Positions 1,179 through 5,009 of a DNA stretch of 64,000 nucleotides are shown here, one piece after another (the stretch's first letter is position 1; every line of letters starts with the position of its first letter). The stretch spans positions 186,001 through 250,000 of the forward strand of contig NZ_LJCP01000011.1 of assembly GCF_001399755.1 (NCBI RefSeq). The letters are read 5' to 3'. The stretch is from Thiohalorhabdus denitrificans. Its GTDB lineage: Bacteria > Pseudomonadota > Gammaproteobacteria > Thiohalorhabdales > Thiohalorhabdaceae. The notes beneath the pieces were generated by a model. It searched no databases, was not told the origin of the DNA, and saw nothing but the letters and a program-made list of their open reading frames with translations. The translations under genes and the position numbers were made by a program.

Positions 1179-2504
1179 ATGCCAAAACGCATCAACCTGA
1201 CCCTCCTCGTACTGCTCTTCACCACCCCTGCCTGGGGCGCTCCGAACATCATTGAAAAGCTCAGTGTCTGGGTGGAATCCGGACAGCCTGAGAGGGCCTA
1301 CGAATTAGGCCTTGAATATCGCCATCAATACGAGGGAACCCCCCGGTTCGACTTCTACTACGGGGTGGCTGCGGTCGACACCGGCCATTACACCGAGGGG
1401 ACCATGGCCCTCGAGCGGGTTCTCCTCCGCCAGCCGGACCTCGATCGGGCGCGCCTCGAACTGGCGCGGGCCTACTACCTCATGGGCGAGGACCGCCGGG
1501 CCGAGGAGGAGTTCGAGACCCTCGACGACAAGGACACCCCGCCGGAGGTGGCGGAGGCCGTGGACGGCTACCTCGCCGCCATCCGCTCCCGCGACCACAA
1601 GCGGCACACCGATTTCACCGGCCACATCGAGCTGGCCGGCGGCCACGACTCCAACGTCAACAGCGCCACCGCCGATGACTCGGTGACCATCATGGACGGC
1701 CTTTTGGCCCTGCAACTGGACGACGAGTCCAAGGCCATCGACGACAACTTCGGGCAAGTCCGGGCCGGACTCGGACTCACCGTCCCCACCACGCCGTACC
1801 GGGGTTTCTTCCTCCAGGTGGACGGCTCCCGGACCATGCACGCCGAGGCGACCCCGTACGACACCGCCCTCGGGGCCGCCCAGTTGGGCGCGCAGTGGTG
1901 GGTGGGGCCCGTGGACATTCGGCTCGGCGCCTCCGGACGCCGGTTCTACCTCGACAGCGAGCCCTACCAGGACGCCTACGGGGTCTTCTTTGATGGGAAG
2001 GTCCGCGTCGGCGAGACGTGGCAGGTGTCCTGGACCGCCCGGGGCGACCGCCTCGCCTACCCCGAGCAGGAAGTGCGCAACTCCATCCTCTGGAACGCCG
2101 GCCTCGGCCTCTCCAAGGTCTGGAACCTGCCCTGGCAGGTGCGCACCGCCCTGAACGGCTTCTACGGCAGCGAGATCCCCGACGAGGACACCGAGGCGGC
2201 CAGCGCCATCGCCGAGCGCGACATGGTCGGCGGACGGTTCGGCCTGTCGGTGGCCCCCTCCGGCCCGTTCCTGTTCACCGCCACGGGCACCGTCCGGCGG
2301 AGCGAGTACGCGGGCGAGCAGGCCCTGTTCGGGGAGGCCCGGGAGGAGACCCTGTACCAGGCCGAGGCGGGCCTGGACTGGACGCCCGCCGCCGGGCTGC
2401 GCGTCGGCCCCCGGGCCTCGTACGCCGTGAACGACGCCAACCTCGACCTCTACGCCTACGAACGGACCCGGTACTGGCTCCGCGTCCGCTACGACCTCGA
2501 CTGA
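1179..2504 (+). CDS. TPR plus outer-membrane beta-barrel protein, Slam/DUF560-like
   Basis: The 441-aa product starts with a signal peptide (hydrophobic LTLLVLLFTTPAWGA, predicted cleavage near residue 20). A TPR-like helical region follows to about residue 135 (AYELGLEYRHQYEG, ALERVLLRQPDLDRARLELA). The rest is a barrel of alternating strands that opens with the motif GGHDSNVNSA and ends in an aromatic strand (YWLRVRYDLD). This domain order and length match surface lipoprotein assembly modifiers (Slam), outer-membrane translocons that deliver barrel-bearing proteins to the surface. It is 10 bases upstream of a FecR-domain gene, so the two are probably co-transcribed and co-functional. A substrate-independent porin role cannot be excluded. 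Confidence 0.75.
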   Translation: MPKRINLTLLVLLFTTPAWGAPNIIEKLSVWVESGQPERAYELGLEYRHQYEGTPRFDFYYGVAAVDTGHYTEGTMALERVLLRQPDLDRARLELARAYYLMGEDRRAEEEFETLDDKDTPPEVAEAVDGYLAAIRSRDHKRHTDFTGHIELAGGHDSNVNSATADDSVTIMDGLLALQLDDESKAIDDNFGQVRAGLGLTVPTTPYRGFFLQVDGSRTMHAEATPYDTALGAAQLGAQWWVGPVDIRLGASGRRFYLDSEPYQDAYGVFFDGKVRVGETWQVSWTARGDRLAYPEQEVRNSILWNAGLGLSKVWNLPWQVRTALNGFYGSEIPDEDTEAASAIAERDMVGGRFGLSVAPSGPFLFTATGTVRRSEYAGEQALFGEAREETLYQAEAGLDWTPAAGLRVGPRASYAVNDANLDLYAYERTRYWLRVRYDLD

Positions 2505-2514
2505 AGGAGCGGCC

Positions 2515-4173
2515 ATGAGCACCAACCCGCAACGCACCCTCCTCACCGCCGCGGCCCTGGCCGCCGCCCTGTCCGCCCCGGCCCACGCGGAGAACCGGGT
2601 CATCGGCAAGGTGGTCATGGAGACCGGCGAGGTCTTCGCCGTCGGCCCCAACGGCGAAAAGCGCGACCTCCGCCGCGGCTCCATCATCCAGGAGAAGGAG
2701 ATCCTGATCAGCGGCGAAGGGGCCCGCGCCCAGATCCGGTTCCGGGACGGCGGCCTGGTGGCCCTCAAGCCGGACACGCGGTTCACCGTCTTCCGCTACC
2801 GCGAGGAGGCCGGGCAGGGCAAGAAGGCCGGGGCCTTCCTGCGGCTGGTCGAGGGCGGCCTGCGCACCGTGACCGGCGCCATCAAGGGCGGCAAGGAGGA
2901 CCAGGAGTACCGCCTGGACACCCCGGTGGCGTCCATCGGCGTCCGTGGCACCGCCTACGCCCTGCGGGTCTGCGAGGGCGACTGCTCCGGCGGGGCCCAG
3001 GAGGGCCTGTACGGCGCGGTCCGCGAGGGCGAGATCACCGTGGACAACGACCGGGGCCAGGCCCGCTTCGGCGCGGGGCAGTACTTCCACGCCGCCAGCG
3101 CCGCCGACCCCGCCCGCCGCATCATCACGCCGCCGGCCGGTCTCCTCGAGGGCACCACGGTCGCCCGGGACGCCTCCGGCGCGGGCCAGAGCCGGTCCGG
3201 GGAGCAGGGCGACGGCGGCGGTTCCGGGCTGGGCGCCGCTAAGGGCGCCGCGACCGGCGGCCCCGCCACCCACGCCGACCCCGCCGACGCCGTGCCCCGG
3301 ATGAGCTTCCAGGAGGCCACCGACGTGGACGCCTGGGGCTCGCCGGACATGTTCGCCGACGCCAACGACTACAAGGGGCTGGTGGCCGCGGGCTGGGCGG
3401 GCGATCCCGCCGACTTCCAGGGCACGGGCGTCTCCGCCGCCGACGGCGGGGCCTTCGACACCAATTCCCTCGGCGAGGTGTGGGTAGACAACCAGGGCCG
3501 GGTGGTCCTGGTGCGCGCCGGCAGCAACCTCGGCGACCCCTCCGTGCGCTACGAGTCCATGCAGCTCGCCGAGTCCGGCGGCGACGCGGGCCTCGGCATC
3601 TCCTGGGGGCGCTGGACCGGCGACTTCCAGATCGACCACGGCGGCACGGACTACCTCGACAGCAGCGGCTCGCTGTTCTACGCCAAGACCCAGAACTACA
3701 CCACCGCCGCCGAGATGGACGCCCTGGTGAACGCGGGCGTGAGCAGCGCCACCTACACCGCCACCAACGCCACGGGGCCGGCGCTGGTGGACACCAGCGC
3801 CCACAGCGGGGTTGGCCGCAACTGGAACCTGAAGAGCGCCAGCCTGACGGTGGACTTCGTCAACCAGGACCTCACCGGCGCCGAATTCACCTTCAACGAC
3901 GGCGGCAACTACGACGCCACCCTGGCGCTGACCGGCGCGTCGCGGGCCAGCCTCGGCCAGGACGGCAACCCGGCGGTGTTCGTAGCGGACGGCATGGAGG
4001 GCGACATCATTTACACCGTCACCGGTACCCGCCAGGGCTCCGCCAGCGGCAGCATCGAGGGCGGCCTGGCGGGCGACGCCGCGGAGGCGGCCATCGTGCA
4101 ATTCGACCTGGAGGCCGAATACGACCACCTCGTAGACAGCCACGTGGAGGGAATCAAGATCCTGCGGCGCTAG
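2515..4173 (+). CDS. FecR-domain protein with C-terminal barrel-like region
   Basis: The 552-aa protein has a signal peptide (AALAAALSAPAHA, cleavage near residue 25) and then a FecR domain at about 28-170 (VIGKVVMETGEVFAVGPNG; DTPVASIGVRGTAYALRV). A low-complexity Gly/Ala linker covers about 200-265. Residues about 270-552 are strand-rich, with VDFVNQDLTGAEF and a glycine-rich end (GSASGSIEGGLAGDAAEAA), which resembles the transferrin-binding-protein-type barrel carried by Slam substrates. There is no lipobox. There is no membrane helix after the signal peptide and no sigma/anti-sigma partner, so it is unlikely to be a classical FecR signal transducer. It follows the TPR-barrel gene by 10 bases and is closed by a strong terminator. 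Export by that neighbour is my inference. Confidence 0.75.
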   Translation: MSTNPQRTLLTAAALAAALSAPAHAENRVIGKVVMETGEVFAVGPNGEKRDLRRGSIIQEKEILISGEGARAQIRFRDGGLVALKPDTRFTVFRYREEAGQGKKAGAFLRLVEGGLRTVTGAIKGGKEDQEYRLDTPVASIGVRGTAYALRVCEGDCSGGAQEGLYGAVREGEITVDNDRGQARFGAGQYFHAASAADPARRIITPPAGLLEGTTVARDASGAGQSRSGEQGDGGGSGLGAAKGAATGGPATHADPADAVPRMSFQEATDVDAWGSPDMFADANDYKGLVAAGWAGDPADFQGTGVSAADGGAFDTNSLGEVWVDNQGRVVLVRAGSNLGDPSVRYESMQLAESGGDAGLGISWGRWTGDFQIDHGGTDYLDSSGSLFYAKTQNYTTAAEMDALVNAGVSSATYTATNATGPALVDTSAHSGVGRNWNLKSASLTVDFVNQDLTGAEFTFNDGGNYDATLALTGASRASLGQDGNPAVFVADGMEGDIIYTVTGTRQGSASGSIEGGLAGDAAEAAIVQFDLEAEYDHLVDSHVEGIKILRR

Positions 4174-4197: not shown

Positions 4198-4223
4198 AAG
4201 CCGCCCCCGAGGGGGCGGCTTTC
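4198..4223 (+). terminator. Rho-independent terminator after the FecR gene
   Basis: AAAGCCGCCCCC-GA-GGGGGCGGCTTT is a perfect GC-rich hairpin with A and T flanks, 25 bases after the FecR-gene stop. It marks the end of the two-gene operon. Confidence 0.85.
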
Positions 4224-4685
4224 AACCTGGTAAGGGGCGAGCCCTGCTGCTCAGCCGGGCAATTGCCTTCGGCTTATGAACCCCAGCCTCCTGGCTACGG
4301 CCTTGGCCCTTAAAGGGTGCAGTGGTTCAGGGAGTTCGGCTTACTCGAACGCTGGATCCGGTGATGTTTCGGCCAATCCCCAGGGCTTGGGGGCCCAGAA
4401 GCGCTGGAGACTCTGGCTTCTCCGTTGAGACGGACAACACCCTGGAACCGGTAAGCGTCCTATATTGCCGAGGACCGAGTTCGCTCTATGTGTCCGCTAA
4501 TGAGAGCCTCATCCCAGCACAAAGCATATTGCGGTTATCGTTGACCGAAATAAGCCCTTGCTAACCTATCTTCCTGAAGAGAGACCTCATACAGCTAGCT
4601 TTTGTTAGCGAAACAACCCAGAACCTTACCTTGGACGTTGGGAATTAAAATTTTAAAAAAATAAATCATTAAACCCTAACTCCTA
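4224..4685. other. Intergenic region grading into AT-rich DNA
   Basis: No supported gene is visible. Base composition falls from GC-rich to markedly AT-rich towards 4640-4685 (for example TTAAAATTTTAAAAAAATAAA). Short inverted segments occur, but none matches an RNA family I can name. The region leads into the promoter of the small membrane-protein gene. Confidence 0.4.
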
Positions 4686-4714
4686 TTCAAACGCTCCAAG
4701 AAATTTATTATAAT
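4686..4714 (+). promoter_or_regulatory. Sigma70-like promoter of the small membrane-protein gene
   Basis: TTCAAA at 4686-4691 (4 of 6 matches to TTGACA) and a perfect TATAAT at 4709-4714 are separated by 17 bases. The predicted start is around 4721, leaving a leader of about 58 bases that contains the 4736-4756 palindrome and the RBS. Confidence 0.55.
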
Positions 4715-4735
4715 TAGAAACACCTAAACCCCACA

Positions 4736-4756
4736 CCCCTAATAAATTTATAGGGG
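4736..4756. repeat. Inverted repeat in the leader of the small membrane-protein gene
   Basis: CCCCT-A-ATAAA pairs with TTTAT-AGGGG, leaving one unpaired A. It lies between the predicted transcription start and the RBS at 4766-4774, so it could be an RNA hairpin or an operator. Confidence 0.5.
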
Positions 4757-4778
4757 AAATTAACCACAGGAGGGAATA

Positions 4779-5009
4779 GTGGGCTCTGTAATTTTTCTTT
4801 CACTCATCTACCTTGCCATCATAATTGCCATGATCTGGCAAGGCTTTAAGGGTGTTATGCAAATTGTTGGGAGCGACGAGCTAGAGAGGAAACAAGGCGT
4901 AAAAAGGATTGCCATTTCCGTAACAGCCGGAATCGCAGCCATGATTGTTATCCAAATTGTTATTGGCGGAATGCTGTTTTCTAGCGCGACCAGCACTGTT
5001 GGGTACTAA
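4779..5009 (+). CDS. Small two-helix membrane protein, 76 aa
   Basis: The product has two hydrophobic helices, at about 4-25 (IFLSLIYLAIIIAMIWQGF) and 46-68 (ISVTAGIAAMIVIQIVIGGM), joined by a charged loop (GSDELERKQGVKR). The arrangement is helical-hairpin-like, but I do not recognise the family. The GTG start is fixed by ACAGGAGGG at 4766-4774. It has its own TATAAT promoter and a downstream terminator, so it is a monocistronic unit. Its AT-rich codon use contrasts with the GC-rich neighbours and suggests recent acquisition or unusual selection. A toxin-like or pilin-like small membrane protein is possible, but nothing decides it. Confidence 0.7.
   Translation: MGSVIFLSLIYLAIIIAMIWQGFKGVMQIVGSDELERKQGVKRIAISVTAGIAAMIVIQIVIGGMLFSSATSTVGY

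What the first reader, a model, noticed from the sequence alone, without database searches (positions are those of the whole stretch)
1179..4173. Slam-like TPR-barrel paired with a FecR protein carrying a TbpB-like barrel end
The first gene has the TPR plus barrel order of surface-lipoprotein assembly modifiers. The second is exported, begins with a FecR domain, and ends in a strand-rich, glycine-patterned region reminiscent of Slam substrates, but lacks a lipobox. FecR here has no membrane helix, sigma factor or TonB receptor beside it. The pair may be a secretion system in which a FecR domain is the surface or released effector domain.
Basis: partly seen in the sequence, partly recalled or inferred. 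Interest (0 to 1): 0.65.

Follow-up and report, generated by a model that had tools for sequence, protein, structure and literature searches.

The report
Slam-like barrel paired with FecR–TbpB-fold protein
Two adjacent genes encode an outer-membrane channel of the Slam (type 11 secretion) superfamily and a partner whose tail folds like the proteins Slams put on the cell surface but whose head is a FecR domain; relatives sit beside a membrane adenylate cyclase, so the pair looks like a sensor carrying an outside signal inwards rather than a plain secretion system.

Summary
Gene 1 (1179-2504) is a TPR plus predicted 14-strand barrel of the DUF560/Slam superfamily. Gene 2 (2515-4173) has a signal peptide, a FecR domain and a C-terminal domain (CTD) whose predicted fold matches fHbp, TbpB, LbpB and NHBA in all 50 top structural matches. 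In 79 of 80 homologous loci a FecR gene adjoins the barrel gene; in the 80th the contig ends. Intact partners usually end in one to five CTDs, and lipoboxes are almost absent. The barrels form one clade apart from host-associated Slams.

FecR domains in relatives cluster with CHASE2 sensors (23 of 40 within 6 kb); 22 of 80 pair loci carry a CHASE2 adenylate cyclase. Sinorhizobium NsrA, the published outer-membrane receptor acting through the CHASE2 cyclase CyaK, is FecR-TPR-barrel in one chain. The window's genome has one FecR protein and one CHASE2 cyclase, not adjacent.

Best reading: a T11SS-like branch used for signalling. The barrel docks or displays the CTD; FecR stays periplasmic and relays to CHASE2. 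Translocation and signalling are inferred. Cyclase-FecR-TPR clusters were noted before (Campylobacterota); I found no earlier T11SS link in the open literature searched.

The parts
1179..2504 (+). TPR plus 14-strand outer-membrane barrel, DUF560/Slam superfamily, with N-terminal signal peptide
1248..1598 (+). TPR helices of the barrel protein (residues 24-140), predicted periplasmic
   Evidence: TPR_19 at residues 67-127; helices in the model
1611..2498 (+). 14-strand membrane barrel (residues 145-440)
   Evidence: model pLDDT 94.5; 14-strand barrels OmpG and CymA align at Z about 21
2505..2509 (+). AGGAG ribosome-binding site of the second gene, in the 10-nt gap
   Evidence: read from the sequence
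2515..4173 (+). exported FecR protein with C-terminal TbpB/fHbp-type domain, no lipobox
2515..2589 (+). signal peptide (residues 1-25, ...APAHA/ENR), signal peptidase I type by inspection
   Evidence: sequence; no Cys before residue 153
2710..2979 (+). FecR domain (PF04773), residues 66-155
   Evidence: E 8.6e-11, 42.6 bits, cut-off 24
3130..3309 (+). low-complexity Gly/Ala/Ser-rich linker, about residues 206-265
   Evidence: sequence; low confidence at the start of the model
3562..4170 (+). handle-like strands and C-terminal barrel of TbpB/fHbp/NHBA type (residues 350-552); final barrel from about residue 393
   Evidence: NHBA C-terminal domain 149 of 152 residues aligned, Z 11.5, rmsd 2.8; fHbp C-terminal barrel 118 of 119, Z 10.8, rmsd 2.7
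4200..4219 (+). GC-rich perfect hairpin just after the FecR stop codon, terminator-like but with a short T tail
   Evidence: read from the sequence; not flagged by the terminator scan

Best explanation
The pair is a branch of the Slam/type 11 secretion superfamily used for trans-envelope signalling. Both proteins are exported by Sec. The TPR-barrel sits in the outer membrane and binds the TbpB/fHbp-like CTD of its partner, most likely moving it to, or holding it at, the cell surface. The FecR domain stays in the periplasm. When the outer part meets its ligand, FecR acts on the periplasmic CHASE2 domain of an inner-membrane adenylate cyclase and changes cAMP. In the window's genome the cyclase is encoded elsewhere (G000:C14, about 228992-231403). 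Shown here by computation: barrel family and strand number, CTD fold, obligate pairing, SPI-type export without lipobox, FecR-CHASE2 genomic association, fusion of FecR with a TPR-barrel in NsrA. Inferred: binding of CTD by the barrel, its translocation, the periplasmic position of FecR, contact of FecR with CHASE2, the ligand.
For: Barrel: Slam profile match over nearly the whole length, barrel-only E 1.2e-25 against 1.5e-4 and 0.096 for unrelated outer-membrane barrels, 14 strands. CTD: 50 of 50 top aligned PDB rows are fHbp, TbpB, LbpB or NHBA, Z 9.4-11.5; Foldseek top 27 the same; some relatives hit TbpB_B_D, HphA_C or FHBP_C by sequence; the CTD model finds genuine cargo genes beside Slams. 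Pairing: 79 of 80 loci, the 80th cut by the contig end. CTD copies 1-5, FecR always one, last CTD nearly always 0-17 residues from the C-terminus, lipobox pattern in 1 of 64. Signalling: CHASE2 cyclase in 22 of 80 pair loci; FecR x CHASE2 presence 18/20 against 12/36 genomes, p 3.8e-5, and 23 of 40 FecR domains within 6 kb of CHASE2 against about 0.7% expected; one FecR and one CHASE2-cyclase in the window's genome. Topology: NsrA is FecR-TPR-barrel, with only its barrel loops proposed as surface-exposed and signalling through the CHASE2 cyclase CyaK (PMC7529298); FecR joined to LysM or FimV-type domains; conservation FecR 0.36, TPR 0.36, barrel 0.26, CTD 0.23 median identity. PMC9239204 reports CHASE2 cyclase, phosphodiesterase, FecR and TPR genes clustered in Campylobacterota.
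Against: The window pair itself has no CHASE2 gene beside it and 58 of 80 loci show none in the DNA held (flanks up to 6 kb, many cut short). NsrA has no detected CTD and its barrel is not detectably homologous to Slam barrels, so it is an analogy for domain logic. The LysM/FimV-type N-terminus was seen in three loci only, one with a clear score (2.7e-6, below the curated cut-off). The CTD model has moderate confidence. The FecR domain also resembles, below threshold, Leptospira surface proteins.
Confidence: 0.5

Rival explanations
1. Plain type 11 secretion: the barrel moves the whole FecR-CTD protein to the surface or medium, the CTD being the export signal and FecR the variable-end effector, as in hemophilin/HrpC-type soluble cargo.
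For: Known T11SS cargo has an N-terminal effector and a C-terminal barrel that directs export (PMC8406197, PMC12282271); soluble SPI cargo is known there; the FecR partner is SPI-type and ends in the barrel.
Against: FecR is the conserved single-copy part and the CTD the repeated, fast-evolving part, the reverse of an effector/export-signal split; FecR clusters with CHASE2 periplasmic sensors and is fused to periplasmic modules.
Confidence: 0.22
2. No translocation: the CTD is a periplasmic plug or clamp on the TPR-barrel, and the barrel loops are the ligand receptor, as proposed for NsrA; FecR relays to CHASE2.
For: NsrA works with FecR, TPR and barrel but no detected CTD; 14-strand barrels are narrow; the barrel part diverges faster than the TPR part.
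Against: The CTD fold is that of surface-exposed Slam clients, up to five tandem copies are hard to explain as a plug, and the CTD is the fastest-evolving part.
Confidence: 0.2
3. The FecR N-terminus is a retention module that anchors a surface adhesin (the CTD array) at the barrel, in place of a lipid anchor; the CHASE2 linkage is incidental regulation.
For: Sub-threshold match of the FecR region to the LapA retention module (2.9e-6; 2.4e-6 in L053); no lipobox; tandem CTD arrays.
Against: Scores are below the curated cut-off of 50 bits; the FecR-CHASE2 linkage is strong and holds also for FecR proteins without CTD.
Confidence: 0.08

Closest known systems
Slam / type 11 secretion system (DUF560 barrel with TbpB, HpuA, fHbp, hemophilin-type cargo)
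   Same: TPR plus 14-strand DUF560-superfamily barrel; adjacent exported partner ending in a TbpB/fHbp-type barrel domain.
   Different: Separate clade of barrels; partner carries FecR, is not a lipoprotein, CTDs in tandem up to five; CHASE2 cyclase nearby rather than TonB receptors; transport untested.
Sinorhizobium meliloti NsrA - CyaK (CHASE2 adenylate cyclase) - Clr signalling
   Same: FecR domain, TPR and outer-membrane barrel working with a CHASE2 cyclase.
   Different: In NsrA these are one 1190-aa chain without a detected CTD; its barrel is not detectably homologous to the Slam-like barrel.
Campylobacterota CHASE2 cyclase / phosphodiesterase / FecR / TPR gene cluster (PMC9239204)
   Same: Same gene set by annotation: cyclase, phosphodiesterase, FecR outer-membrane protein, TPR protein; phosphodiesterase-like genes also in Neptuniibacter and Amphritea pair loci.
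   Different: The paper names no Slam/T11SS relation or TbpB-like fold; sequences of those genes were not compared here.
BiofilmReg operon: LysM-FecR protein with CHASE2 histidine kinase (PMC5192318)
   Same: Exported FecR protein encoded next to a CHASE2 sensor.
   Different: Peptidoglycan-binding LysM instead of CTD; histidine kinase instead of cyclase; no barrel.
FecR-FecI-FecA iron-citrate signalling
   Same: FecR domain.
   Different: No sigma factor, no TonB receptor, no transmembrane helix in the FecR protein.

Membership tests
DUF560 / Slam superfamily barrel | N-terminal periplasmic TPR domain | tested here: met
   TPR_19 over cut-off, helices 24-140
DUF560 / Slam superfamily barrel | 14-strand C-terminal barrel | tested here: met
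   14 long strands, pLDDT 94.5
DUF560 / Slam superfamily barrel | sequence match to DUF560/SlipAM profile | tested here: met
   window copy alone below cut-off (16.7 vs 22 bits), but the same-genus copy and many relatives over it, 40 of 48 relatives match at E<=0.1, profile-profile E 1.5e-38
Type 11 secretion system | adjacent gene for an exported protein with C-terminal 8-strand TbpB-type barrel | tested here: met
   fold match to fHbp/NHBA/TbpB C-terminal barrels; strand count of 8 taken from those matches, model confidence moderate
Type 11 secretion system | partner is moved across the outer membrane by the barrel | not testable with these tools
   needs surface-display assay
Slam (surface LIPOprotein assembly) | partner is a lipoprotein with lipobox | tested here: not met
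   no Cys before residue 153 in the window protein; lipobox pattern in 1 of 64 CTD-bearing relatives
FecR anti-sigma regulator (FecIRA) | transmembrane helix, adjacent ECF sigma factor and TonB receptor | tested here: not met
FecR-CHASE2 signalling set | CHASE2 sensor gene adjacent to the FecR gene | tested here: inconclusive
   not adjacent in the window; one CHASE2 cyclase elsewhere in the genome; adjacent in 22 of 80 pair loci and in same-genus G002
LapA-type retention module | match over the curated cut-off | tested here: not met
   27.5 bits, cut-off 50

The most novel reading that the evidence does not exclude
A whole clade of the Slam/T11SS superfamily, widespread in environmental Gamma- and Betaproteobacteria, serves signal transduction: the barrel displays a TbpB-fold sensor at the surface while the same polypeptide's FecR domain in the periplasm controls a CHASE2 adenylate cyclase, so that one chain spans from cell surface to inner-membrane sensor.
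Probability: 0.35. Interest if true: 0.82.

Novelty: new variant of a known kind. Interest (0 to 1): 0.62.

Why it matters
Of ten T11SS sequence clusters, nine (mostly water and soil bacteria) contain no characterised protein and their cargo is unknown (PMC8406197). This pair supplies a consistent candidate cargo class for one such environmental branch, not recognisable from the window sequence by Pfam models of the CTD, and links T11SS-type barrels to CHASE2-cAMP signalling. It also offers a general reading of sigma-factor-free FecR proteins: FecR as the periplasmic partner of CHASE2, joined to different outward modules (LysM, TPR-barrel, TbpB-type domain). All of this is testable in laboratory E. 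coli.

Tried and rejected
Protein scan of genome contigs with the single FecR protein found nothing; the barrel alignment worked. Sequence search of the PDB gave no usable relative for either protein. Pfam finds no family in the window CTD itself. Classical FecR-FecI-FecA signalling rejected: no sigma factor, receptor or membrane helix. An unrelated porin for gene 1 rejected by profile comparison with controls; OmpG and CymA top the structural list because they share the 14-strand barrel, and no Slam structure appeared in the rows listed. BcsC and PelB lead the Foldseek list, as TPR-barrels of another kind; not pursued further because the sequence profile favours Slam. NsrA's barrel as a homologue of the Slam-like barrel: no convincing support. 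TonB-like proline-rich spacer in L043/L049/L061 considered; the segment before it is FimV/LysM-like instead. The NsrA paper itself (PMC5952392) is not in the library; its content is taken from later papers and from the annotated gene.

Full report
Observation. Both reading frames are present as described, on the + strand, separated by 10 nt with a good ribosome-binding site between them, so they are very likely co-transcribed. Third-position GC is that of neighbouring housekeeping genes for gene 2 (0.97) and slightly lower for gene 1 (0.91). The FecR domain is the only one found in the genome, and the flanks hold no sigma factor or TonB receptor.

Gene 1. TPR_19 is over its cut-off; SlipAM and TPR_Slam are only sub-threshold in the window copy, but 40 of 48 relatives match SlipAM (best 9.6e-20) and 29 match TPR_Slam at E<=0.1. 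A model built on 48 sequences has mean pLDDT 94.5: helices 24-140, then 14 long strands up to residue 440. This is the architecture published for Slam1, a periplasmic TPR domain and a predicted 14-stranded barrel (PMC5449769). Profile-profile comparison with 18 Slams from a family rich in them gives E 1.5e-38 over 398 columns. The barrel alone gives 1.2e-25 over 287 columns, end to end, while an unrelated outer-membrane barrel set gives 1.5e-4 and 0.096. In a maximum-likelihood tree the FecR-paired barrels and the Slams separate across a well-supported branch (99/95), each group being one clade on this sampling.

Gene 2. A signal peptide without lipobox, FecR at 66-155, a Gly/Ala-rich linker, then a strand-rich end. 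Alignments of relatives show shared motifs in the end region (WGRW; H..G.P....G...Y; G.F.G..A..AG) although identity is only about 20%. The repeat unit of about 260 residues, visible where CTDs occur in tandem (L053), suggests a handle plus barrel unit. The model of residues 262-552 (70 sequences) has pLDDT 70 and pTM 0.73. Foldseek against the PDB puts TbpB, fHbp and NHBA in the first 27 places, E from 1.6e-4, and the second aligner lists only fHbp, TbpB, LbpB and NHBA in 50 rows, Z 9.4 to 11.5; the C-terminal barrel of fHbp aligns over 118 of 119 residues at 2.7 A. Independent sequence support: single relatives match TbpB_B_D (7e-5) or HphA_C (0.002); the FecR proteins of Paracoccus and Shinella match TbpB_B_D (2e-4) and FHBP_C (0.002); a CTD profile finds cargo genes beside genuine Slams at 1.4e-5 and 3e-7; profile-profile comparison with four cargo proteins gives 2e-4 against 0.31 and 0.62 for controls.

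Pairing. A scan of one genome per species with the barrel alignment gave 304 relatives, of which the best 80 loci were kept. In 79 a FecR gene adjoins the barrel gene: 77 directly downstream on the same strand, L107 directly upstream, L104 on the other strand; in L097 the contig ends 216 bases after the barrel. These are the closest relatives of the window barrel, so the figure describes this clade, not all DUF560 barrels. Of the FecR proteins, 64 carry one to five CTDs; many without one are cut by contig ends or are short second FecR proteins. FecR is always single, the last CTD nearly always lies within 17 residues of the C-terminus, and a lipobox pattern appears in 1 of 64.

What FecR does here. 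A CHASE2 adenylate cyclase lies in 22 of the 80 loci, often directly after the FecR gene. Over 56 relatives of the window genome, CHASE2 is present in 18 of 20 genomes with FecR and 12 of 36 without (Fisher p 3.8e-5, not corrected for phylogeny), and 23 of 40 FecR domains lie within 6 kb of a CHASE2 domain against roughly 0.7% expected. These FecR proteins carry different outward modules: LysM with a CHASE2 kinase, FecR-TPR-large barrel in one chain with a CHASE2 cyclase, or the CTD with the Slam-like barrel. The window's genome has exactly one FecR protein and one CHASE2 protein, a CHASE2-cyclase, on another contig; in same-genus G002 FecR-CTD and CHASE2 are adjacent.

Published anchors. In Sinorhizobium meliloti the outer-membrane protein NsrA perceives a protein signal and acts through the CHASE2 cyclase CyaK (PMC7529298, PMC13001267). 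The gene directly upstream of cyaK, here identified with nsrA by position and by length (barrel given as residues 600-1200), encodes FecR 66-160, TPR 417-587 and a C-terminal barrel. [quoted passage not shown] T11SS papers describe nine of ten sequence clusters as uncharacterised (PMC8406197) and do not mention FecR in their main text; no open paper held both FecR and DUF560.

Mechanism. Taken together: barrel binds CTD (inferred from the fold and obligate pairing with a Slam-type barrel), CTD reaches or faces the surface (inferred; the CTD is the fastest-evolving module at 0.23 median identity, FecR and TPR the slowest at 0.36), FecR stays in the periplasm (inferred from the LysM/FimV and NsrA fusions), FecR acts on CHASE2 (inferred from linkage).

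Verdict. Confirmed observation, partly supported interpretation. A new variant of a known kind: a T11SS-superfamily pair with a FecR-bearing, non-lipidated partner and a probable link to cAMP signalling.

Noticed in passing
L053:7480-11397, L082:2247-7607, L107:400-5514, L041:1941-5444: FecR proteins with three to five tandem TbpB-fold domains, up to 1786 aa, beside the barrel gene.
   Followed up: partly
L205 (G001:C4:198000-217500): A same-genus genome has the barrel followed by a FecR protein without CTD and one with CTD, a third FecR nearby, and a CHASE2 cyclase about 5 kb away.
   Followed up: partly
L043:7252-9240, L049:1855-3156, L061:7236-9266: FecR proteins with an extra N-terminal FimV/LysM-like segment and a Pro/Glu/Val-rich spacer before FecR; two carry the CTD, the third is cut by the contig end.
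   Followed up: partly
L058:10058-13033 and 14 other loci: A TPR plus Glyco_transf_41 (O-GlcNAc-transferase-like) gene lies close downstream of the pair in 15 of 80 loci, mostly Betaproteobacteria.
   Followed up: no
L212, L213, L214, L215: Gammaproteobacterial NsrA-like proteins (FecR, TPR, large barrel; two with a TonB-receptor-like barrel match) next to CHASE2 cyclases.
   Followed up: partly
window 4500-5009: GC falls to 41% between the FecR gene and RNase E/G, with a small ORF (4779-5009, 76 aa, hydrophobic, no Pfam match).
   Followed up: no
window 2710-2979: The FecR region scores below threshold with Leptospira Lsa33 and LipL45 and with the LapA retention module.
   Followed up: no
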